The notes beneath the pieces are model-generated. The model searched no databases and was not told the origin of the DNA. It was given only the letters and a program-made list of their open reading frames with translations. A program made the translations under genes and the position numbers. A stretch of DNA of 64,000 nucleotides, from positions 620,001 to 684,000 of the forward strand of contig NZ_CP061379.1 of the NCBI RefSeq assembly GCF_015624505.1, written 5' to 3'. The DNA is from Bradyrhizobium commune (GTDB taxonomy: Bacteria; Pseudomonadota; Alphaproteobacteria; Rhizobiales; Xanthobacteraceae). This document shows, one piece after another, positions 40,120 to 52,193 of this stretch. Position 1 is the stretch's first letter; each line of letters begins with the position of its first letter.

Positions 40120-41442
40120 TCACCCCGCCACGCTCTCCTCCGCCGCCACCGGCCCCACCGGCATCGGCACCGTCACGTAGCTCTTCGGCAAATTCACCGG
40201 CCGGTAGTCCGGCTCCGCCGCCATCCGCTTCAGCACGCTCTCATGCACATGCGCGCCCTCGCCGATCACGCGCGGCTCGCAATCGGGGATGTAGAAGCCG
40301 AGCACCACTGTCCGCTCCGGCCATTCCTTGTAGGTCGCGCTCTTCGGAAAATACTCCAGCACGCGCCAGAGCGCCGTCATCGAATTGTGCAGCGTGCCGG
40401 TCTTGCCGGTATAGGCGGGCGCGACGTATTGGAACGGCGAGCTCTTGCGCTGGATGCCCCAGGCGAGCTGATTCACGGTGCTTTGGCTGAAGTTCAGCCC
40501 CGCCTTCGCCGCCTCGTCGATCATCCAGATCAGCGGATATTTCGATTCCGCGCTCTCGGCCTCCGGATAGCCACCGCCGACGTCGCAATGCACGCCGGCG
40601 AACCACACCTGAAGAATGTCCTGCGGCTCCTTCGTCTCGTCCCGCACATAGCGGTTGCGCCAGAACTCCTGCGGCTCTTCGTACGCCTTCAGGCGGAACA
40701 TGCAGCGCCGCTCGTCGATCGCGATCGCCTGGCGGAAGATGTGGACGCTCGGATTGCGCAGCGTGAAGGCGAGCTCCTCCAGGCTCGGCCAGTACAGCCG
40801 GTCGGCGCGCGGCACGATCACGCTCGCCACCGTGTCCCACACCCCGATGAAATGCACGGTCGGCCAGCGCGTCGAGGTGATGCGCGCGAATTGCGCGGCG
40901 AGGTCGAATCGGTCCTTCGGCAGCGGCCCCTGGTCGTCGACCGCGATGTCCTTGAGGTCCTCGATGTCGTTGCCGCGCCCGGTACCGGAATATTGCTTGT
41001 AGGCGATCAGGCCCGAACCTGCGAGGTTGGCCTGCTCCGGCGAGATCAGCCCGACCTTGTGGATCAGCCCCGCCAGCACGCGAACCGTGTAAGCACCGCG
41101 CGAAAAACCGAACATGTAGATGCGGTCGCCCGGCGCGTAGTGCGCGACCAGGAAGCAATAGGCCGCGAGCACATTGTCGTCGAGCCCGTAGCCGGTGGCG
41201 AGGCCCAGCACCAGCTTGATGTTGGACTTCCAGCGACCCCACGTCGACGGCTCCGTCATGGTGCCGACGCCGGGATCGTAAAACACCATCTGCCGCGGCA
41301 CGGTCTTGTCCGTCTTGCACAGGCAGCGATAGAGCTTCAGGACGTTGGAGATGTTTTCCGAGATCTCGTTGCCGGTGCCGTCACAGCAGATGACGAGGTT
41401 TTTCGGTTTGGTCTCGTGCTCGCGCTGGCCGTCGTGCTCCAC
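40120..41442 (-). CDS. DUF2235 domain protein (alpha/beta hydrolase, phospholipase-like)
   Basis: A 440-residue protein of the DUF2235/T6SS phospholipase effector-like fold. The GTG at 41442 has a GGAGAGG site upstream. The N-terminal KNLVICCDGTGNEISENISN is characteristic, and the nucleophile elbow is GFSRGAYTVRVLAGL near residue 115. No secretion signal or Rhs/VgrG partner was seen. The first 30 or so codons of this gene, with the region upstream of its start, are duplicated in degenerate form at 44970-45110. Confidence 0.88.
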   Translation of the reverse strand: MEHDGQREHETKPKNLVICCDGTGNEISENISNVLKLYRCLCKTDKTVPRQMVFYDPGVGTMTEPSTWGRWKSNIKLVLGLATGYGLDDNVLAAYCFLVAHYAPGDRIYMFGFSRGAYTVRVLAGLIHKVGLISPEQANLAGSGLIAYKQYSGTGRGNDIEDLKDIAVDDQGPLPKDRFDLAAQFARITSTRWPTVHFIGVWDTVASVIVPRADRLYWPSLEELAFTLRNPSVHIFRQAIAIDERRCMFRLKAYEEPQEFWRNRYVRDETKEPQDILQVWFAGVHCDVGGGYPEAESAESKYPLIWMIDEAAKAGLNFSQSTVNQLAWGIQRKSSPFQYVAPAYTGKTGTLHNSMTALWRVLEYFPKSATYKEWPERTVVLGFYIPDCEPRVIGEGAHVHESVLKRMAAEPDYRPVNLPKSYVTVPMPVGPVAAEESVAG

Positions 41443-41599
41443 GGTCCGCCTCTCCCGGTGATGCGATCGGGGCGAGCATAGCGGAAAAGCGCGACGGCGA
41501 GGAGACGAGGGTGGAGGCGGGCCATTTTGGCTGTCGTGCTCGCGGTGTCCGGCCGCGAGTGCGATGGCTCTTGATGGGATCGATTTGGCCGCGGGCTCC

Positions 41600-41738
41600 T
41601 CAACCTCTCCCGCAAGCGGGGGAGGTCGGCGCGTAGCGCCGGGTAGGGGCTCGCTCCTCATAAGGAGTGTCCATTGCGGAAGCACCCCACACCCCAGCCC
41701 TCCCCCGCAAGCGGAAGAGGGAGCGCAGCTTCTACACG
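41600..41738. repeat. Family B repeat, copy 3
   Basis: Begins with CCTCTCCCGCAAGCGGGGGAGG and ends with CTCCCCCGCAAGCGGAAGAGG, with a GGAGTGTCCATTGCGGA centre shared with copy 4. It fills most of the 312 bases between the DUF2235 start and the next gene; no gene was seen there. Confidence 0.75.
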
Positions 41739-42965: not shown

Positions 42966-43100
42966 ACCTCTCCCGCTCGCGGGAGAGGTCGCCGCGCTTG
43001 AAGAGCGTGGCGGGTGAGGGCTCTCTCCTTTTGGGGAGTGTCGATTGCGGAGACACCCCCCACCCCGACCCTCCCCCGCAAGCGGGAGAGGGAGCGCACC
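42966..43100. repeat. Family B repeat, copy 4
   Basis: Ends are CTCTCCCGCTCGCGGGAGAGG and the inverted CTCCCCCGCAAGCGGGAGAGG. The central TGTCGATTGCGGAGACACC resembles copy 3. It separates the coiled-coil protein gene from the DUF1488-like gene. Confidence 0.75.
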
Positions 43101-43403: not shown

Positions 43404-43483
43404 GGGGATGAAGCTTCCGGCGCGTGATCCCACGCCTCACGCGGCCCGGTCGAGCTCCTTCTCGTAGGCCTTCAGGCTTCCCT

Positions 43484-43723
43484 TCATGGCAGCGGATCGG
43501 GCTCGACGTGGTCGATGTGGGCGCCGGCGGCCCGCACGTCCCGCGCCGCGGTCGCGATAGCCTCGCTGACGGATTCCGCCTCGCGGCTGAAGTCGACGAT
43601 GATGTGTCCCTTCTGGAAAGCGATCGCCGCGTCGTCGCATCCGGCATCATAGAAGCGCTGCTCGAAATCCTCCGCCTGCGGATCGAGGCCGGAGGCGATG
43701 ATGCTGAATTCGAACGTCTTCAT
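43484..43723 (-). CDS. Small protein resembling the N-terminal part of a DNA-binding protein, possibly truncated
   Basis: A 79-residue frame starting MKTFEFSIIASGLDPQAEDF. The pattern ADDFEQRFYDAGCDDA-type and IIVDFSREAESVSEAI looks like the N-terminal half of a longer rhizobial protein that I remember as continuing into a helix-turn-helix after a VEPDPL segment. Here the frame ends two residues after that point. It may therefore be a 3'-truncated remnant lying just left of the island; that is inference from memory of the family. Confidence 0.5.
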   Translation of the reverse strand: MKTFEFSIIASGLDPQAEDFEQRFYDAGCDDAAIAFQKGHIIVDFSREAESVSEAIATAARDVRAAGAHIDHVEPDPLP

Positions 43724-43770
43724 TTGAAGTCCTCCGATCCGGGCGGGCAGCGCGTGGCCTTGGCGAAATG

Positions 43771-43800
43771 CTGTCAACATCCATAGATTGAATGTACTAT
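43771..43800 (+). promoter_or_regulatory. Predicted promoter for the phosphoribosyltransferase/SLOG pair
   Basis: CTGTCA at 43771-43776 and TACTAT at 43795-43800 are spaced 18 bases apart, 30 bases before the gene start. An imperfect dyad GAATGT/ACACTC covers the -10 region. Low confidence. Confidence 0.35.
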
Positions 43801-43831
43801 ATACACTCTATCATGGATCGCAGAGGGGCAT

Positions 43832-44410
43832 ATGGTCATCAACCTGGACGGCAACTGGAAATCGGGCAAGGCCTACGATCTTCATACCGTATCAAGCACC
43901 CACCTCGGGACCGATGAGTTCGGTCACGATCGTTTCGACAATGCGCGCAGCGAGATGGGCGAGCTCGTGTATCAGCTCAAATACAAGGGCGATACATCCA
44001 AGGTTCAGCCGATCGTTGCCCTGCTCGACGACATCAAGGGAATCGAAGGGTTTGATTTCATCATTCCCATTCCACCAACAAAGAAGAACCGTCCGGTCCA
44101 GCCGGTTGAGCTGATCGCGGAGGCGCTCGGCGCGAGGCGCAAGGTCGCGGTCGCGACAGGCGCGCTCACCAATAGCGGCGACGAGGAACTAAAGGGTGTC
44201 ACCGACCCGATCGCGCGCAAGGAACTCCTCGATGAAGCCCTCAAATTGGACCCCTCTCAAGGCAAGTTCAAAGGCAAGAAAGTATTGTTGGTCGACGATC
44301 TCTACCGTTCAGGTTCGACGCTACGCGTCGCGACCGATTTGCTATATAAGGAAGGTGAAGCAGCGCAGGTCTCCGTCTTGACAATGACCAGAACGAGAAG
44401 CAATCGATGA
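43832..44410 (+). CDS. ComF-like phosphoribosyltransferase of the island
   Basis: A 192-residue phosphoribosyltransferase-fold protein distinct from the housekeeping ComF at 3665. It has no zinc cysteines. The PRPP loop is VLLVDDLYRSGST at residues 151-163, preceded by FDFIIPIPPTKKNRPVQPVE. GAGGGG lies upstream of the ATG. The G+C content is lower than in flanking genes. It overlaps the SLOG gene by four bases, so the two are co-translated. Such PRTase/SLOG pairs have been proposed as nucleotide-centred conflict or stress modules; the exact reaction is unknown. Confidence 0.82.
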   Translation: MVINLDGNWKSGKAYDLHTVSSTHLGTDEFGHDRFDNARSEMGELVYQLKYKGDTSKVQPIVALLDDIKGIEGFDFIIPIPPTKKNRPVQPVELIAEALGARRKVAVATGALTNSGDEELKGVTDPIARKELLDEALKLDPSQGKFKGKKVLLVDDLYRSGSTLRVATDLLYKEGEAAQVSVLTMTRTRSNR

Positions 44411-44964
44411 CCACCGTTTTCCTGTCAGGCTCTCGAAAGATCAGCCGTATTGGAAATGAGGTTCGCAGCCGGCTGGAAAACATGGTCCAGAAAGGGCTGA
44501 CGATCGTCACTGGCGATGCCAATGGTGCAGACAGGGCCATGCAGTCCTATCTGCACGAGTTGGGTTATTCCGATGTCACAGTGTATTTCGTTGGAGATGC
44601 GCCGCGGAACAACGTCGGAAACTGGCCGATCCGAAACGTCATTGTCGATGCGAAGCTGCAAGGGCGGGACTTCTACGCCCAAAAAGACCGGGAGATGGCG
44701 AGGGTTGCCGATCTCGGGTTTGTCTTGTGGGACGGCAAGAGCTCCGGCTCGGTCCAGAACATGCTGTGGCTCGTCGCGCAGAAGAAGACGGTCGTCGTCT
44801 ACTACGCTCCCGAGAAGCAGTTTTACAACTTCAGGAACGAGAACGAGCTGATCGGTCTTCTCAGCAATTGCGATGACGAAATCCTGGACGATCTCGGTCG
44901 AAAAGTCGCGCTGCCCGATCGTTTGAAGAAAGCGAATCGAACCCAGCAGGCATTCAATCTCTAG
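44407..44964 (+). CDS. SLOG-domain (YspA/DprA-like) nucleotide-binding protein
   Basis: A 185-residue Rossmann-like SLOG protein. The diagnostic elements are FLSGSRKISR near the start and TGDANGADRAM at about residues 35-45, which bind a nucleotide or its derivative. LGFVLWDGKSSGSVQNM and TVVVYYAPEKQF follow in the order expected of the fold. The start overlaps the PRTase stop by four bases. Its stop is six bases from the truncated DUF2235 copy, marking an insertion or recombination boundary. Confidence 0.82.
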   Translation: MTTVFLSGSRKISRIGNEVRSRLENMVQKGLTIVTGDANGADRAMQSYLHELGYSDVTVYFVGDAPRNNVGNWPIRNVIVDAKLQGRDFYAQKDREMARVADLGFVLWDGKSSGSVQNMLWLVAQKKTVVVYYAPEKQFYNFRNENELIGLLSNCDDEILDDLGRKVALPDRLKKANRTQQAFNL

Positions 44965-44969
44965 ATGGT

Positions 44970-45061
44970 GATGTTTTCCGAGATCTCGTTGCCGGTGCCG
45001 TCGCGGCAGATGACGAGGTTTTTGGTGTGCTGTTGTGCTCGTGCTGGCCGTCGTGCTCCAC
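44970..45061 (-). pseudogene. Truncated, frameshifted copy of the DUF2235 gene 5' end
   Basis: Closely matches 41350-41442: the same GTG start, ribosome-binding region and first 30 or so codons (NLVIC-DGTGNEISENI). One base is missing between the start and the AACCTCGTC codons, so the start is out of frame with the conserved part. The similarity continues upstream of the start to about 45110. The rest of the gene is absent, replaced by the SLOG gene. Confidence 0.82.
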
Positions 45062-45178
45062 GGTCCGCCCCTCCGGGTGATGCTACCGGGGCGAGTGTAG
45101 CGGAAAATGACGACGAACGTAGAAGCCGGGTGAGGTCTGTCGGCCGATTTGAGCAGTCCAAAGCATCGGGACACGAAG

Positions 45179-46447
45179 TTATGTAATCCGGCCCATCTTC
45201 TTTTTTGTCGAGCGTGCGGTTTTCATTTTACGTAAGACCACAATGATTTCGCTGTCCATTGTCACTGTGCGTGCTCTACGTTCGAGCCGTCTTCGCTCGC
45301 TACGGCCGTATCGATTAATAGATCTTGGGACCCGCTTATTTTGAAGCCTCCTCTGTTCGACGGCTACCAGCCTAAAGCCCCGGGCCTTGAAGCAGTCGAT
45401 CGTAAATTGATCGAGCAGCAGGCGAAAGCCGCCTGTTGACCGTCTACCCACGACAAATACGGCCTCCCCGCCAACCTTCAAGCTGTTGGCTAGATGTCGG
45501 CAAACTATTGCGTAGTCTGAAAGAAACCGGGTAACCATTCTGCCGAGCTTGCTATCAGCGTTTCCCGCCCAATAATTCCTTAGCGGCAGCTCAGTCTTGC
45601 TCGCGTCGACGCCTCCCAGGCATCTGCCGTCGATGTCCCCTCCTCGAACAGCCAGTCTAGAAAGCCCCTTGAGACGGCTGACGATGGCCAAACACAGCGA
45701 GGATGCCGCCCCGTACTGTACCGTTGTGCGAGAATCTCCGTATGGTGGTGACGTGAGGACGACATCAAACCTTGCGTGCTCTGACGATAGCAAAGCTTTT
45801 GCATTACCGCACGTAATCGTGGCCTTTGGTAGACTAATCTCGTCTGCTAGTTGCTTCGCGCAGTATTTCAGGCGCTTGTCGAAGATGCTCCAAGCACAAG
45901 GTCGAAATTCTGCTCGCTCTTCCGCGCTCATCCGATGCAGCTTCCAGCCGCTAGTTCTTGCGTATGAGACTTGCCGCGCAGTAGCACTGAGGGCTGCGGC
46001 GACCACGAGAAGTTCGGGTCTTGCGAGCCGCTTTCGGTTGATCCAGCTAATTATTCTCCCCAGTTCCCTCAAAGTCTGGTTGGAGAACCATTGGACCTTG
46101 CGCTCAAGCGAAAATTGTACCTGCCCATAGCTCTCGGTAGAACGCGCTTTGTTTAGTCCCTCTCGAATGCGCTGAATCTTCTCACTACTGGCGAGAGAGA
46201 ACTTCGCTTCTGACAGAAGGCAAGCAAGAGGATTTGCGTCTAAGCCAACGCACAGATCTGCGTTTTTTGCGGCAGCTAGGAGCCGTCCTGTGCCACAGAA
46301 CGGATCCAGTACTCTTGAGTTCGGAGGTACGAACCGCCTGGCTAGGGACGTTGCCAATTCGTCCGCCACCATCGCAGGATAAGGGTGCAGCTTGCTCAGG
46401 AAGGTCGCAGCTGCTCCTGTATGAGGTTTGTGAGACGTTCTACGCAA
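45179..46447 (-). CDS. Island DNA methyltransferase 1 (N6-adenine/N4-cytosine type)
   Basis: Last gene of the six-gene operon, 422 residues. It has an HPYPA motif at residues 21-25, the SAM-binding motif I LDPFCGTGRLL (from about 47) and the catalytic motif IV TSPPYGDS at about 232-239. Motif I precedes motif IV with about 180 residues between, room for a target-recognition domain. The C-terminus is very basic. The TTG at 46447 overlaps the kinase gene by 52 bases and is needed to keep HPYPA. A second methyltransferase of the same layout is two genes upstream. No nuclease partner was found. Confidence 0.85.
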   Translation of the reverse strand: MRRTSHKPHTGAAATFLSKLHPYPAMVADELATSLARRFVPPNSRVLDPFCGTGRLLAAAKNADLCVGLDANPLACLLSEAKFSLASSEKIQRIREGLNKARSTESYGQVQFSLERKVQWFSNQTLRELGRIISWINRKRLARPELLVVAAALSATARQVSYARTSGWKLHRMSAEERAEFRPCAWSIFDKRLKYCAKQLADEISLPKATITCGNAKALLSSEHARFDVVLTSPPYGDSRTTVQYGAASSLCLAIVSRLKGLSRLAVRGGDIDGRCLGGVDASKTELPLRNYWAGNADSKLGRMVTRFLSDYAIVCRHLANSLKVGGEAVFVVGRRSTGGFRLLLDQFTIDCFKARGFRLVAVEQRRLQNKRVPRSINRYGRSERRRLERRARTVTMDSEIIVVLRKMKTARSTKKKMGRIT

Positions 46448-46902
46448 CTCTGCACCGTCAGATATGACGTGTCGACCGTGACCGCTGGGGCTAGCGGTAA
46501 ATGGCCACCGTAAAAAGCATTGCAGAAGGATTCATCTCCTTGGTCAAGACCAAGAAGGTCGTCAATCCCGATATTCACATCTCGTAGACGCGCCAGCCGA
46601 ACTTCAGGGGACGCGGTTAATCTGACTAGATAGATGGGCTGGGTGAGGCCAGAGAGCACATAATTTAGAAAACGACCCTCTACCAAGCGAACCTCCCCTG
46701 GTGAGGACGTCGCCCAGTGAATCGTCTGTTGGTCGATGTCTCTGTGAATCTCTTCTGGCACCTCGCCACTTATTCCTCTCTTGGCAAGAGTGCTTTTGAG
46801 TTCATCACCGCACGATCTGATTGGAAAGCCAGAAGCAATAGACAGAGCGGCTGCTGAGGACGTTTTTCCAACTTTCGATTTACCGAAAATAGCGATGATC
46901 AT
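46396..46902 (-). CDS. P-loop nucleoside/nucleotide kinase-like protein
   Basis: A 168-residue P-loop protein starting MIIAIFGKSKVGKTSSAAAL, with Walker A GKSKVGKTS at residues 7-15. The arrangement, an arginine-rich LTASPEVRLARLRD segment like a LID, and the small size resemble deoxynucleoside-monophosphate or cytidylate kinases. The ATG overlaps the preceding methyltransferase stop by one ATGA. It lies between the two DNA methyltransferase genes. Possible roles are nucleotide supply or effector phosphorylation; neither can be told from sequence. Confidence 0.78.
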   Translation of the reverse strand: MIIAIFGKSKVGKTSSAAALSIASGFPIRSCGDELKSTLAKRGISGEVPEEIHRDIDQQTIHWATSSPGEVRLVEGRFLNYVLSGLTQPIYLVRLTASPEVRLARLRDVNIGIDDLLGLDQGDESFCNAFYGGHLPLAPAVTVDTSYLTVQSCVERLTNLIQEQLRPS

Positions 46903-48056
46903 AACTTCTGAAAGACCGCTATATGCTCGATTGGTTCCGCCGCCAGCCGATCTGATACCCGGCGACGGGTGGGCGTGCGTGGCAGAGGCCCCCAAACGAG
47001 CGGCATGAGTTCTGAGAAAAGTTCAAATATCTGAGTCGCTGTCCCTGGATATTTTTGGGATTCTCCAAGCACAATCGCGCAAAGACCTTGTTTTCGGAGA
47101 ACGCGGTACATTTCGTCGCGGCACGTTTCCATATCCTTCGTGTATTCCGCTAAAAGGTTTCGACGACTGCGCCGATACCTGGCTCCGATTTCATCCTTTC
47201 GCTCATCGACAAGAGGCCAGTTCATCCACAAGTAAAGTAGCCGATTGGCGTGGGTGTAGTCGATCATTCCGATGTAGGGCGGAGACGTCACGATCAAATC
47301 GACTGCATTATTTGTGATTGCAAGGGATCGAGCGTCCTGTTGCACGACCAGTGCGTGATGTAGATTGAATTGCTCAAACGAACTTTGCCGAGGGAGAGCT
47401 TCGACACGTTCCCGAAAGAGCTCAATGACATTGTGATTCACGAGGGTTCTAGGGTGTACGTTGTCGGCGACCCAACCCCAGTGGTGACGTCGTTTCTTGC
47501 CTGTGCGAGTCTTTGATCCTGGTGTCGAAGCGCATTGAAATAGAATGTCCGAGAAGATCGCTCGCAAAACTAAACCCTCCTTGGGAGGGGCATTCTCAAC
47601 TTCCTTCCAAAGGAATTTGAGCTGACTGAGCGTGTCGTCGGAGTACCAGTTGGACAGGTCGGGATTGCCTCCTTCCCCGCGACAGCCAATCGTTGACGTG
47701 CGACACTGCTGTTCGAAGACGAGCTTGTTTCGGAGGCGAGTCAAAAAGTCGTTGTTCAGACCATTCGTAAGGAGCGCAAGTTTTGCATTTGCAATGAGCC
47801 GAAACGCTGACAGCCGATCAGACGCAATAACTTTGCGTTTCAATTTCAGCGCTTCGATTGCGGTTGTCGCGCTCCCTGCAAATGGGTCGAGGACTAAGTC
47901 ACCAGGATTGGAAAGAACTTGGATTAATGCGGATGGGATTTGGCCGATGAAATTGCCGGGAAACCAATGGATTGACTGAACAGATCCTCGGAGGGTGGTC
48001 GCCCTTGGGAAATTCCAGTCGATCCGTTCAAGTCGAGTTAGATCTAAAGGAGCCAC
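46899..48056 (-). CDS. Island DNA methyltransferase 2 (N6-adenine/N4-cytosine type)
   Basis: A 385-residue DNA methyltransferase. Motif I is LVLDPFAGSATTAIEA (DPFAGS at residues 57-62) and the catalytic motif IV is VDLIVTSPPYIGM (TSPPY at 257-261). The N-terminal WFPGNFIGQIPSALI corresponds to the HPYPA region of the paired enzyme. About 195 residues separate motifs I and IV. The start lies 13 bases inside the HD gene and the stop overlaps the kinase start. Two such enzymes in one operon could modify the two halves of a non-palindromic site. Confidence 0.86.
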   Translation of the reverse strand: MAPLDLTRLERIDWNFPRATTLRGSVQSIHWFPGNFIGQIPSALIQVLSNPGDLVLDPFAGSATTAIEALKLKRKVIASDRLSAFRLIANAKLALLTNGLNNDFLTRLRNKLVFEQQCRTSTIGCRGEGGNPDLSNWYSDDTLSQLKFLWKEVENAPPKEGLVLRAIFSDILFQCASTPGSKTRTGKKRRHHWGWVADNVHPRTLVNHNVIELFRERVEALPRQSSFEQFNLHHALVVQQDARSLAITNNAVDLIVTSPPYIGMIDYTHANRLLYLWMNWPLVDERKDEIGARYRRSRRNLLAEYTKDMETCRDEMYRVLRKQGLCAIVLGESQKYPGTATQIFELFSELMPLVWGPLPRTPTRRRVSDRLAAEPIEHIAVFQKL

Positions 48057-49315
48057 GCTTGGCCGTTTGAGCTGGTTGCAGTCTGGTCGTGGATTACTTC
48101 GGTTCCGAGACGTGATGTAACGTTTTCGATCAAAAGCTTCAGTTCACGGTGGGTAAATGGGCGTTTAAGAGGTGATCCGACTCCAAGCAGCCATTGGTTC
48201 GACCCTTTTCCGAAGGTTTCTGCTTCACCGCTGTCAAAGTGCGCTGCGACTGCTCGCTCCCGCTTGTCTTGTATTCCGTAAGCGAAACAAGTTCTGTCGA
48301 GTGTCGATGACAAATGTAGAGAAAGTTCAAGTAGCTTTGGATAGGCCGGTCTCTTGCCTTTGAACCAGATCAAAGGTGTCGAGGTCCAAAGTTCGCCAAC
48401 CATCCAACGCTCGGCCGCTTCTCTTACCTCCTTTGTCGAACTGTCCAGCAATCTAGCAATGAACTGCTGATCGAACATCCGCCAGTCGTCGACCCGAATT
48501 TCACCTGCTTCAAAGGCTCTGACGGTCGCATAGAGCAACATCAGCTTCCCAACGAAGTCTCTCTCGGCCAGCATTAGATTTTCATAGACGCTTCTTCGCG
48601 CCTCCTGCCAAGAGATGATGAATTGGCGTGCTTCTTTACGGAATATTGGCTGCCGGCTTGAGTCCGTGACGCCGACCAAGGATCGCGCGAGTCGTTCCGG
48701 AACAGCGAAATCGACGCGAAGACCCATGTGATAAGCCATGCGATAGACGTTATCGATATTGTCAATATCGATGTCGCCAGAGATGATGCGCCCGAGAGGG
48801 CCACCTCCTTGAATCGTGTCCATTATAGCCCGCAACGTACTTTCGACGTTGCGGCCGGAATAGACACTCGCCCACTCTCGGAGGCCGGGCCCGCGACCCA
48901 AAATGATCTGAAGATCCGCTCCTAGGAGCTCCTCGTCGGAATTTAGCAGTATTTCCCGCAGGCGCTCCTCGTGGGAGAACTTCGTTCCCACATATTGAAG
49001 CGCTTCTTCGGTGAGGTGACCGAACGAGGTTATTGCCCAATCGTGCAGAAGCGCAGACGCATCGAGCAGCAGCCGTTCGTCGTGATTCAGTGCTGGTCTG
49101 AGCGCTAGCAAAGTCGATAAATGAGCGACGCCAAGCACATGTTCAAAGCGAGACAGGTTTGCGATCGACGGCATATCTATCGAATCAACGTTCGACAGCC
49201 GGACATGGCGCAGCCGCTGAACGATCGGTCTTTGCGCCAGATTGTTTAGGTGTTCGTTGAGGTCGATCGATCCGTATAATGGGTCAATATACTGCCGATG
49301 TGGATGAGAGCTCAT
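48044..49315 (-). CDS. HD-domain phosphohydrolase (dGTPase/SAMHD1-like)
   Basis: A 423-residue HD-superfamily protein. The start DPLYGSIDLNEHLNNLAQRPIVQRLRHV has the Q-R-L-R of the dNTPase/SAMHD1 group. Metal ligands are FEHVLGVAHL (H59, H65), ALLHDW (H91-D92) and a downstream aspartate in SGDIDID (D181). It therefore probably hydrolyses a nucleotide or dNTP. dNTP depletion is a known antiphage strategy for related enzymes. The stop overlaps the second methyltransferase gene, and its ATG overlaps the stop of the membrane protein gene. Confidence 0.82.
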   Translation of the reverse strand: MSSHPHRQYIDPLYGSIDLNEHLNNLAQRPIVQRLRHVRLSNVDSIDMPSIANLSRFEHVLGVAHLSTLLALRPALNHDERLLLDASALLHDWAITSFGHLTEEALQYVGTKFSHEERLREILLNSDEELLGADLQIILGRGPGLREWASVYSGRNVESTLRAIMDTIQGGGPLGRIISGDIDIDNIDNVYRMAYHMGLRVDFAVPERLARSLVGVTDSSRQPIFRKEARQFIISWQEARRSVYENLMLAERDFVGKLMLLYATVRAFEAGEIRVDDWRMFDQQFIARLLDSSTKEVREAAERWMVGELWTSTPLIWFKGKRPAYPKLLELSLHLSSTLDRTCFAYGIQDKRERAVAAHFDSGEAETFGKGSNQWLLGVGSPLKRPFTHRELKLLIENVTSRLGTEVIHDQTATSSNGQAWLL

Positions 49316-50415
49316 CTCCCTGCCTCCATTGTCGTTTCTGGATTGGAGAGAAAGTTTACGTCTCCAGCGATGTCAACGTACGTTTTGAGCAGCCGCCATT
49401 CATTATCTCCCAGTCCGGATTCGACGAAAACGGTGAGCATGCCGCCCCACAATTTCTCGGAGGGGATTACATGACGTAGGAAGATGCGAAACTGCTCAAC
49501 TGATTCCAAGTCTGTGAGAGCTCCAGTGAATTCGTAGATGACCAGGGCCGGTTTTCTGCTTTCGCTGTTCGCATTCGTTTTGAATAGCTTAAAGGCGGCC
49601 GACGAAGCGCTGTGGATGCCCGCGTAAGTCCGCTTTGATTGGATCAATCGCGCGCCGGTCCCTGCAAAATCACGATCCTTCTTCGCATAGATCGAATCGA
49701 TGAAGGCGAAATGGCTCGAATAGGCATCGATGGCAATTACATTTCCAGCGCGAGCTTGCCAGTCTTGACCCATCTCTTTTTGAAGATTGGCGATGAAGTC
49801 TATGGGATGGTTCGCGGCGGTCACGTATTGAACAAAATTTTCATGACGCAAGAATGCGGCGCTTAGGGCGACGAGAAGCTTTCTTGAGGCGTCAAGCCTC
49901 TCGACTTGAACTCCAATGGAAGACAACGATTGGTTGGCAGGCGAGTTCTTAGATAGATCGAGGCCGAAGTCAGATAGGACAGATAGAATCTTTCTCAGAA
50001 GGTCGGCATCTATCGGCAGCGCGTTGTTTGAATAGTTAGGCTTTGGATTTACGAGCGACCAAAACCGCTTCAACGGCCGAACGAGAGGTAAGTGGAAGAG
50101 ATTGATCTTGTCGACGAAATAAATGAACCTGATGGTGGTTCTGTAGACGACAACGAGCGAAACGACCAACGCTGTTAGGAAGATTGCGGCCGCAACTTGC
50201 AAAGCATAACTTGTCCAAGCCGCCGGCATGAAGAAGGCGGCAGTGGTTGTGATCGCGACTAGTAGGCAAAGCAAGAATACTGGGAAGATATCGTTTATAA
50301 CAAAAGGGGCTTTCCGCTCCCTTCCCACTAGAGTGTATAGCCCAATATGAAATGCTACCAAGCCTGCGGTGGCTGTAAGTATCGGCCACGGATTTTCGAT
50401 CGTAAGAGTTGTCAT
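49312..50415 (-). CDS. Island membrane protein of unknown function
   Basis: A 367-residue protein. Three membrane segments lie in the first 92 residues (about 12-30, 42-63 and 69-92). The C-terminal 270 residues are soluble and include ANHPIDFIANLQKEMGQ, NVIAIDAYSSHFAFIDSIY and PALVIYEFTGALTDLESV. I cannot assign the soluble domain; it has no Walker A or other obvious catalytic motif. In this operon it may be a membrane-acting effector, which is inference. Its start is two bases from the QueC-like gene. Confidence 0.75.
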   Translation of the reverse strand: MTTLTIENPWPILTATAGLVAFHIGLYTLVGRERKAPFVINDIFPVFLLCLLVAITTTAAFFMPAAWTSYALQVAAAIFLTALVVSLVVVYRTTIRFIYFVDKINLFHLPLVRPLKRFWSLVNPKPNYSNNALPIDADLLRKILSVLSDFGLDLSKNSPANQSLSSIGVQVERLDASRKLLVALSAAFLRHENFVQYVTAANHPIDFIANLQKEMGQDWQARAGNVIAIDAYSSHFAFIDSIYAKKDRDFAGTGARLIQSKRTYAGIHSASSAAFKLFKTNANSESRKPALVIYEFTGALTDLESVEQFRIFLRHVIPSEKLWGGMLTVFVESGLGDNEWRLLKTYVDIAGDVNFLSNPETTMEAGR

Positions 50416-50417
50416 CG

Positions 50418-51104
50418 CTAGACATTCTCGATCATAGTGTCTTCGAGAACTTCCACTTCGATCTCGCTTAGCTTGGAAATTGACGCATCGATGGCGCTTC
50501 CCCAGAGGTCGACCTGCTGACGAAGTATATCGTCAGAGAGGGAGACGTTCGATACCTGCTGAAGACACTTTTGTTCCAATGATTCGCTGCTCAATCCCAG
50601 CTTCTGTAATGTTTTCTCGGCTTCTTCCCGCGAAATGAGATCGTAAGCGGGCAATACTAATTTGATGCCATGGCGAGCAAGGATGCTGCTAAGTCGGGTG
50701 ATCGCAATAGGTGATTGCTCCGGCCAGGAGCTTTGATAGCTCGCATAGCCGAAGGCAAGATTTGGAATCTTCAATCGAGCAGCTAGGACAGAAGACGCCA
50801 CAACATAAGAATGATGGCAGGGCAGGCAGGTTTTCTCGTAAAACGAAGTATCGGTTTTGAGCGCCATCGGCTGCTTGACATGTAGCCAGCGGGTTGACGG
50901 CGGAAGTATTGCATTCATCTCCCGAATCCGTTGGCGAACTCTCTGGATCCCGACAAGGTGACCGGAGGAAATCGTTATTAGAAATGTGGTGGTGCCAGCT
51001 TGGCTAAGCCGAGCGGCGGCAATAGTCGAATCGCGCCCGCCGGAAAACATCACGGCGCAGCCGGCCTCTAGCCTCATTGCTGGTAGGACAGACCAGTCCA
51101 TCAT
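50418..51104 (-). CDS. QueC/ExsB-like PP-loop ATPase
   Basis: First gene of the operon, 228 residues from the ATG at 51104 (ATG at 51101 also fits the same GGAG site). The PP-loop SGGRDST is at residues 21-27. C93-x2-C96 (KTCLPCHHSY) and C180 (EQKC) could form a zinc or sulfur site, and the KLVLPAYDLISREEAEKTL segment recalls the QueC/ExsB end region. QueC-like proteins occur in some antiphage systems (for example Qat) and in 7-deazaguanine synthesis. The long open frame to 51284 crosses the rpmB terminator and is not used. Confidence 0.78.
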   Translation of the reverse strand: MMDWSVLPAMRLEAGCAVMFSGGRDSTIAAARLSQAGTTTFLITISSGHLVGIQRVRQRIREMNAILPPSTRWLHVKQPMALKTDTSFYEKTCLPCHHSYVVASSVLAARLKIPNLAFGYASYQSSWPEQSPIAITRLSSILARHGIKLVLPAYDLISREEAEKTLQKLGLSSESLEQKCLQQVSNVSLSDDILRQQVDLWGSAIDASISKLSEIEVEVLEDTMIENV

Positions 51105-51248
51105 CCCGGCTCCAAATGCTGCCGCAGCAAGAATAACGCAATTCTGGATCGTATCAGCGTTGCTAGTGATTCTAAACCTGTGGTTCCGCCATGGGATCTG
51201 CTCCCCACAGCTTGAAATGCTTCGATGCGGAGCGGCTCTTCCGAAATT

Positions 51249-51281
51249 AAACAAAAACGGCCGGATCTTTCGATCCGGCCG
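51249..51281 (-). terminator. Rho-independent terminator of rpmB
   Basis: On the minus strand a perfect 10-bp stem CGGCCGGATC/GATCCGGCCG closes a GAAA tetraloop and is followed by TTTTTGTTT. It lies about 70 bases beyond the rpmB stop. It also insulates the island operon, whose first gene starts about 145 bases further on. Confidence 0.9.
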
Positions 51282-51814: not shown

Positions 51815-52000
51815 TGCGCTCCCTCCCCCGCCCGCGGGGGAGGGTTGGGGAGAGGGTGCCTCCGCGGAGGGGCAGCCGCGCGAAGTGTCCCCCAGAGGAG
51901 AGAGCCCTCACCCGCGCTACGCATAGCCGAGGCTCCGCCTCGGCGTTCTCTGGAGGACGGCCGCCGAAGGCGGCCTATGCTCTCCCGCAAGCGGGAGAGG
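51815..52000. repeat. Family B repeat, copy 5, with nested hairpins
   Basis: Begins with GCGCTCCCTCCCCCGCCCGCG, ends with CTCTCCCGCAAGCGGGAGAGG, and holds CGAGGCTCCGCCTCGG and GGCCGCCGAAGGCGGCC hairpins inside. The rest of the 533 bases from 51661 to 52193 shows no further gene; it includes the likely rpmB and DUF3108 promoters. Confidence 0.7.
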
Positions 52001-52193
52001 TATCGGCGCCCGTGGCCTACCCGATCACCAAAACGGCAATGTTTAAAACCCCTTACCATCACATAAAGGGCGCATTCGCACCCGAAGAGTCCGGCCAGGT
52101 TCCGTCGTTTTGGCATCTCGGACATCCTTGCACATTGTGTCCCGCCATTTTTGGCTTAACTAACAAGGCCTGACGTCCCCATTGGATGGTTTT

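What the first reader, a model, noticed from the sequence alone, without database searches (positions are those of the whole stretch)
45179..51104. Six-gene operon with PP-loop, membrane, HD, two DNA methyltransferase and kinase-like genes: candidate undescribed system
All six genes are on the minus strand, most overlapping by 1-52 bases, with lower G+C than their surroundings (one hand-counted line near 47050 gives 28 of 60, against 40 of 60 for a line in the ABC transporter region). Composition: QueC-like PP-loop ATPase, three-TM protein, dGTPase/SAMHD1-like HD hydrolase, DNA methyltransferase, P-loop kinase-like protein, DNA methyltransferase. Each piece is known separately in antiphage or DNA-modification contexts, but I know of no named system with all of them. 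The overlaps argue they are made together. Inference: two methyltransferases mark host DNA while the nucleotide-processing proteins and membrane protein form a sensing and killing or nucleotide-depletion module, or together make a modified base.
Basis: partly seen in the sequence, partly recalled or inferred. Interest (0 to 1): 0.92.

Follow-up and report, generated by a model that had tools for sequence, protein, structure and literature searches.

The report
Six-gene thio-nucleotide methyltransferase defence cassette
A six-gene unit found here and in other bacteria, and once in a virus-derived DNA record, sits where related bacteria keep anti-virus systems, and one of its enzymes resembles the enzyme that makes the antimetabolite thioguanine; it looks like an undescribed defence system, but nobody has yet tested what it does.

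The parts
50418..51104 (-). PP: PP-loop ATPase of the YcfA (6-thioguanine synthesis) group, SGGRDS motif, Cys93-x-x-Cys96 and Cys180
49312..50415 (-). TM: three N-terminal helices (taken as transmembrane by eye; no predictor run) plus a KaiC/RecA-fold domain (about residues 130-362) without a recognisable Walker A
48044..49315 (-). HD: SAMHD1-like HD phosphohydrolase; R56, H59, H91, D92, D185 in 120 of 120 listed proteins, own included
46899..48056 (-). M2: DNA methyltransferase, TSPPY motif; solved relatives include N4-cytosine and N6-adenine methyltransferases
46396..46902 (-). KIN: P-loop nucleoside-monophosphate-kinase-like protein, best PDB relatives are cytidylate kinases
45179..46447 (-). 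M1: second DNA methyltransferase, HPYPAM and TSPPY motifs
45116..51248 (.). exchangeable cassette: right border 51249/51250 in 13 of 13 relatives analysed; left border defined in the 7 of 13 that carry the left fragment beside their cargo (fragment ends at 45103-45115 in 6 of 7, at 45025 in L071)

Best explanation
This is a mobile six-gene anti-phage (or anti-mobile-element) cassette joining nucleotide chemistry to DNA marking. Shown by sequence: conserved unit, hotspot position, protein families, catalytic motifs present in PP, HD, KIN, M1 and M2. Inferred: PP activates a nucleobase carbonyl with ATP and inserts sulfur, probably into a guanine nucleotide as YcfA does, using its three-cysteine site; KIN raises the monophosphate; HD removes the triphosphate of the product or of dNTPs and so sets the level of active nucleotide; M1 and M2 methylate the cell's DNA so that unmodified or replicating foreign DNA can be told apart; TM binds the nucleotide through its KaiC-fold domain and acts at the membrane, or the thio-nucleotide itself poisons phage replication. 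The defence role is the firm part (about 0.75 on its own); the thio-nucleotide step is about 0.5; the division of labour is about 0.3.
For: Same order complete in L001, L002, L003 and on viral contig locus L082. PP, TM and HD share contigs: 29 contig lengths of at least 5 kb occur in all three lists (a proxy). Hotspot: at the same site, 10 of 13 relatives' loci carry a protein matching a PADLOC model at E<=1e-20 (9 of 13 without a generic MTase), namely Gabija, LmuB of Lamassu (3 loci, one a partial protein), RT-Toprim, Dsr1, ThsA-like SIR2, HamB and PDC-M55A/NsnB. In the 7 of 13 loci whose cargo starts directly at the same left fragment, 6 of 7 do (5 of 7 without the MTase). Control of ten window ORFs of at least 400 aa: 0 of 10 at E<=1e-20, 2 of 10 at E<=1e-5. 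The Bosea copy lies beside IetAS; the Hyphomicrobium and Bosea copies lie near recombinase or integrase genes. PP is closest to YcfA. PP cysteines 120 of 120 and HD active site 120 of 120 listed proteins. A TM-like and PP-like pair in viral contig L081 sits beside a PADLOC dCTPase protein, E 4.9e-124.
Against: No activity of any of the six proteins has been tested. YcfA lacks the CxxC in the printed alignment, and two PP relatives lack all three cysteines (L004; L081), so the sulfur chemistry may differ. No cysteine desulfurase or NUDIX domain is in the six, unlike tgs. No restriction-endonuclease domain was found, so what methylation protects against is unknown. HD-MTase pairs occur in four loci where no PP, TM or KIN relative was found, so thiolation is not essential to the wider family. 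Three of 13 hotspot loci had no strong defence match, and only 12 of the 20 proteins tested reached E<=1e-20. The unit is rare: order 1 of 397 and class 1 of 385, both the own genome only; family 3 of 391, being the own genome, the Rhodoplanes contig again and one distant HD-MTase locus.
Confidence: 0.5

Rival explanations
1. DNA hypermodification operon: the enzymes build a modified (for example thiolated) base or nucleotide that ends up in the DNA of the host or of a prophage, and the two methyltransferase-fold proteins act in that modification rather than as ordinary methylases.
For: Two DNA MTases, an NMP-kinase-like and a dNTPase-like protein; the same HD-MTase pair sits with a carbamoyltransferase fused to an ASCH domain in L041; a complete copy lies on a viral contig, beside genes that look replication-related by eye.
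Against: No base-exchange enzyme (TGT/DpdA type), thymidylate-synthase-like enzyme or polymerase domain among the six; the site holds defence systems in relatives; M1 and M2 keep the TSPPY motif in the aligned loci.
Confidence: 0.2
2. Nucleotide-depletion defence: HD is the effector that destroys dNTPs on infection, as dGTPase and Clover do; the other five genes regulate it or protect the host.
For: HD resembles SAMHD1; catalytic residues kept in 120 of 120 listed proteins; weak hit to the PADLOC dGTPase model, E 0.0018; a TM-like and PP-like pair beside a dCTPase in L081.
Against: HD falls, with those of L006, L009, L035 and L041, on one side of a branch (100/96) from 21 generic HD proteins; a methyltransferase follows it in 9 of 9 loci where the next gene could be read, so it is not a stand-alone dNTPase; no CloB-type NTase; it does not explain the conserved YcfA-like enzyme.
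Confidence: 0.15
3. Biosynthesis of a released antimetabolite of the 6-thioguanine type, used against competing bacteria.
For: PP is closest to YcfA; the published tgs operon also combines a sulfur transferase, hydrolases and a membrane protein (PMC7994395, section 7 read).
Against: No NUDIX or cysteine desulfurase among the six; TM has a KaiC-fold domain rather than looking like an EmrE-type exporter; two conserved DNA MTases and the defence hotspot have no role in this reading.
Confidence: 0.08

Closest known systems
YcfA / ycf and tgs 6-thioguanine clusters
   Same: PP is the same PP-loop group: best sequence, Foldseek and VIA match; shared YQ..[WF]PEQ stretch
   Different: PP adds CxxC and a third Cys; no NUDIX or desulfurase; extra HD, kinase-like protein and two DNA MTases
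Qat (QatC) and Cap9 (QueC-like defence proteins; that Cap9 belongs to type IV CBASS is recalled)
   Different: QatC model scores 11.6 bits against a cut-off of 280; no other Qat or CD-NTase gene recognised among the six
Clover and dGTPase defence
   Same: HD domain of the SAMHD1/dNTPase superfamily
   Different: distant sequence; no CloB-type NTase; followed by a methyltransferase in 9 of 9 readable loci
Type II restriction-modification and MADS
   Same: M1 and M2 match MTase_II models and, weakly, mad2
   Different: no restriction-enzyme domain; NCBIfam MADS2 scores M1 11.1 bits against a cut-off of 720
PsyrTA / ShosTA (the neighbouring PRT-SLOG pair, not the operon)
   Same: PRT hits PsyrT 2.8e-12 and ShosT 9.8e-9; SLOG hits ShosA 1.3e-4
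   Different: outside the exchangeable cassette; no PRT or SLOG match in the four complete relatives as far as held

Membership tests
6-thioguanine biosynthesis cluster (ycf/tgs) | YcfA-type PP-loop enzyme | tested here: met
   closest in sequence and fold; activity not tested
6-thioguanine biosynthesis cluster (ycf/tgs) | NUDIX hydrolase (YcfB/TgsC) in the operon | tested here: not met
   no NUDIX domain in any of the six, Pfam E<=1; feature taken from PMC7994395
6-thioguanine biosynthesis cluster (tgs) | PLP-dependent cysteine desulfurase (TgsA) | tested here: not met
   none among the six
Qat defence system | QatC equivalog | tested here: not met
   NF041925 11.6 bits, cut-off 280
Type IV CBASS | CD-NTase in the operon | tested here: not met
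   no CD-NTase in the Pfam rows or the PADLOC rows shown (best 25 rows only for M1 and M2)
Clover | HD dNTPase with CloB NTase partner | tested here: not met
   HD similarity only distant; no NTase domain among the six
dGTPase defence | dGTPase model match | tested here: inconclusive
   PDLC02374 E 0.0018 for the window's HD, 7e-4 for L082
Type II restriction-modification | cognate restriction endonuclease | tested here: not met
   no REase domain among the six; MTase part met
Dnd/Ssp phosphorothioation | DndC/SspD with Dnd partners | tested here: not met
   no PADLOC hit for PP, TM or KIN and no dnd model among the rows shown for the others, E<=0.1 (best 25 rows only for M1 and M2)
Sulfur transfer through three cysteines (TtuA/NcsA/LarE-like; that they hold a [4Fe-4S] cluster is from PDB titles) | three cysteine ligands | tested here: inconclusive
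   C93, C96, C180 in 120 of 120 listed proteins; all three absent in L004 and L081; metal content not testable here

The most novel reading that the evidence does not exclude
A new class of bacterial immunity. A constant HD-phosphohydrolase plus DNA-methyltransferase core works with interchangeable base-modifying enzymes (YcfA-like thiolase; AIR-synthase-like plus HIT-like; FAD-like enzyme; carbamoyltransferase-ASCH) that make a modified nucleotide, and with interchangeable effectors (KaiC-fold membrane protein, patatin phospholipase, nucleosidase-type protein, 2-TM protein). In the window's type the modified nucleotide is a thio-guanine nucleotide, used as an alarm signal or as a built-in antiviral base analogue.
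Probability: 0.22. Interest if true: 0.92.

Novelty: categorically new. Interest (0 to 1): 0.8.

Why it matters
If right, bacteria carry an immune module that makes a thiolated nucleotide of the kind used as thiopurine drugs and couples it to DNA methylation, a combination I did not find in the defence models or papers searched. The wider HD-methyltransferase family would link several unassigned operons under one testable scheme. The rpmB-side hotspot also gives a simple way to find further systems in this genus.

Tried and rejected

Searches that found nothing or little: HD in the phage collection (no match); HD profile in viral contigs (no match), which missed the HD of L082, so its patterns were too narrow; L041 HD in viral contigs (no match); plasmids gave one distant hit for the window HD and, for three related HD queries, mainly that same record and low-coverage HD matches. 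TM against PDB sequences: nothing below E 0.095. Papers: ten searches; no listing described the six-gene set. Only open-licence PMC papers are searchable. What I saw of papers: PMC7994395 section 7 and find passages; PMC12265719 and PMC10853773 find passages; all others as search listings only.

Weak points. Contig-length matching is a proxy; it uses the listed hits only (120 of 153 for TM, 120 of 320 for HD, and 119 typed of the 120 listed of 364 for PP). The hotspot table uses 14 relatives fetched of 30 in the call, chosen because both flanks matched; 13 were analysed (L077, 601 bases, left out); the 20 proteins tested were picked by eye, 12 of 20 reached E<=1e-20, and loci L070, L071 and L079 had none at that level. 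Control ORFs were picked by length and not checked to be real genes. A second copy of the left fragment, next to the cargo, is present in 7 of 13 (L067, L069, L071-L075); the left hits in L068, L078 and L079 lie at the edge of the fetched stretch and are probably the main gene copy, so I do not count them. Overlaps in relatives use the most upstream start, so long ones are probably overestimates. The G+C contrast is strong in the window and L001 (53% against 74%) but small in L002, L003 and L082. In the HD tree (35 rows) the L006 and L041 rows have long branches. The 22 generic HD loci (21 of them in the tree, L026 left out) have about 1.5 kb flanks at most, so an MTase further away would be missed. 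In L004 the contig ends inside HD. The first 417 bases of L035 were not tested for a patatin. Foldseek E-values for TM are modest (best 3.4e-5); the KaiC-fold call rests mainly on VIA Z. Genome searches scored only a few candidates per genome.
Full report
What is there. Six minus-strand genes at 45179-51104 form one tightly packed operon. In transcription order: PP (228 aa), TM (367), HD (423), M2 (385), KIN (168), M1 (422). Neighbours overlap by 4, 13, 4 and 52 nt, with one gap of 2 nt. G+C is 52.1%, against 65.0% for the window outside 43408-51248. The genome is a single 7.62 Mb contig. No call names its genus; Bradyrhizobium is my guess from names on protein relatives at about 50% identity.

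It is a conserved unit. The HD profile found Rhodoplanes tepidamans, Bosea caraganae, a Hyphomicrobium MAG and a deltaproteobacterial MAG. The first three hold all six genes in the same order. The fourth contig ends inside HD after PP-TM-HD. A viral contig (L082, from a 46.7 kb IMG/VR record) also carries all six in order at 28-49% identity. In these four complete relatives, 18 of 20 junctions overlap, counted from the most upstream start. Among the listed relatives of TM, HD and PP, 29 contig lengths of at least 5 kb occur in all three lists, which is a proxy. Citrifermentans bemidjiense has PP and TM as Gbem_0325 and Gbem_0326. The unit is rare and patchy. Order: 1 of 397 genomes, the own one. 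Class: 1 of 385, the own one. Phylum of the deltaproteobacterial MAG: 2 of 345, being the MAG itself and one distant locus. Pseudomonadota-wide at the looser E<=1e-12: 23 of 398, of which only the own genome and G850 go below 1e-25. The phage collection gave none; plasmids gave one distant HD.

It sits in a defence hotspot. The DNA from 51290 rightwards (rpmB side) matches 31 of 31 genus genomes searched, the own one included. I fetched the region from 14 of the 30 relatives and analysed 13. Homology to the window resumes at 51249 or 51250 in 13 of 13. In 7 of 13 a fragment like window 44966-45115, a remnant of the Tle1-like/DUF2235 gene at 40120-41685, lies directly beside the cargo; it ends at window position 45103-45115 in 6 of these 7. 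The window interval between these borders is the six-gene operon. With 20 proteins of relatives tested, 10 of 13 loci had a PADLOC match at E<=1e-20: Gabija (GajB 2e-253, GajA 7e-285, L072), LmuB of Lamassu (L068 3e-163, L078 2e-37, and a partial protein in L069 1e-83), RT-Toprim (L067 3e-217), Dsr1 (L074 7e-85), ThsA-like SIR2 (L075 1e-26), HamB (L076 7e-31), PDC-M55A/NsnB (L066 2e-40) and a generic methyltransferase (L073). Loci L070, L071 and L079 had none at that level, and 8 of the 20 proteins did not reach it. Ten long ORFs elsewhere in the window gave 0 of 10 at E<=1e-20 and 2 of 10 at E<=1e-5. In G1835 the left gene and rpmB are only about 0.4 kb apart, close to an empty site. Outside the genus, the Bosea copy lies beside IetAS (1.3e-67 and 2.1e-35), and the Bosea and Hyphomicrobium copies lie near recombinase or integrase genes.

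A wider family. The HD-M2 pair occurs with other partners in four loci: with a nucleosidase-type protein (PADLOC 'Effector, PN-superfamily' 8.4e-14) and an FAD-like protein on Rhizobium etli pA (L006); with HIT-like, helical-toroid and AIR-synthase-like genes, plus a patatin matching a PADLOC 'Effector' phospholipase model at 1.5e-67, in a genome of the window's own genus (L009), and with the same set but no patatin seen before the contig end in a second genome (L035); and with a 367-aa protein and a carbamoyltransferase-ASCH fusion (L041). That these PADLOC effector models stem from CBASS is recalled. The names HIT-like, toroid and FAD-like, and the type I restriction and phage-portal genes near L041's operon, come from reading the sequences; Pfam gave no significant hit for the first three. 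In a tree of 35 HD proteins these four and the window type (10 rows) separate from 21 generic HD proteins with support 100/96; long branches leave the order inside uncertain. None of 22 generic loci had an M1- or M2-like neighbour in the short flanks held. In viral contig L081 a TM-like protein with a PRTase-like end lies beside a YcfA-like PP and a dCTPase protein (E 4.9e-124).

How it most likely works. Shown: a conserved, mobile six-gene unit in a defence hotspot with catalytic motifs present. Inferred: PP makes a thiolated nucleotide, probably guanine-based; KIN and HD set its phosphorylation state; M1 and M2 mark DNA; TM responds at the membrane, or the nucleotide itself harms phage replication. 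Rivals are DNA hypermodification, dNTP depletion by HD, and a released antimetabolite. The data speak well for defence, but they do not separate these mechanisms.

Novelty. The six proteins did not match a named system as a set in Pfam, PADLOC-DB 2.0.0 (2023) or NCBIfam 20.0, and ten paper searches listed no description (see Tried and rejected). Newer defence catalogues and subscription papers were not searchable, so a description there is possible.

Noticed in passing
window 43832-44964, + strand: PRTase (ComF/ShosT/PsyrT-like) plus SLOG/DprA-like pair overlapping by 4 nt, resembling the ShosTA/PsyrTA defence pairs; outside the six-gene cassette.
   Followed up: partly
window about 43408-51248: Region beside rpmB is an exchange hotspot in the genus, with Gabija, Lamassu-type, RT-Toprim, Dsr1, SIR2 and HamB-like genes in relatives; one relative (G1835) looks nearly empty.
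   Followed up: yes
window 44966-45115 and 41346-41496: Direct repeat (85-95% identical pieces): a remnant of the Tle1-like/DUF2235 gene marks the left border of the cassette.
   Followed up: partly
L009 4327-10382 and L035 418-5682: Operon of HIT-like, toroid, HD, methyltransferase and AIR-synthase-like genes, in L009 followed by an effector-type patatin; no curated name found for the set.
   Followed up: partly
L041 3707-9488: HD-methyltransferase pair with a 367-aa protein and a carbamoyltransferase fused to an ASCH domain; by eye, beside a type I restriction system and phage portal-type genes.
   Followed up: partly
L006 7239-12522 (Rhizobium etli plasmid pA): HD-methyltransferase pair next to an FAD-like protein and a nucleosidase-type protein matching a PADLOC effector model (8e-14).
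   Followed up: partly
L081 229-6479: Viral contig with a dCTPase protein, a TM-PRTase-like fusion, a YcfA-like PP-loop protein without the three cysteines, and a kinase-like protein: a possible second system built on the TM-PP pair.
   Followed up: partly
L004 2496-3155: PP relative in a deltaproteobacterial MAG has lost all three conserved cysteines while keeping the PP-loop motif.
   Followed up: no
window 41603-41633, 42966-42996, 51978-52008 and others: Recurrent short palindromic repeats (CTCTCCCGC..GCGGGAGAG type) in this stretch.
   Followed up: no
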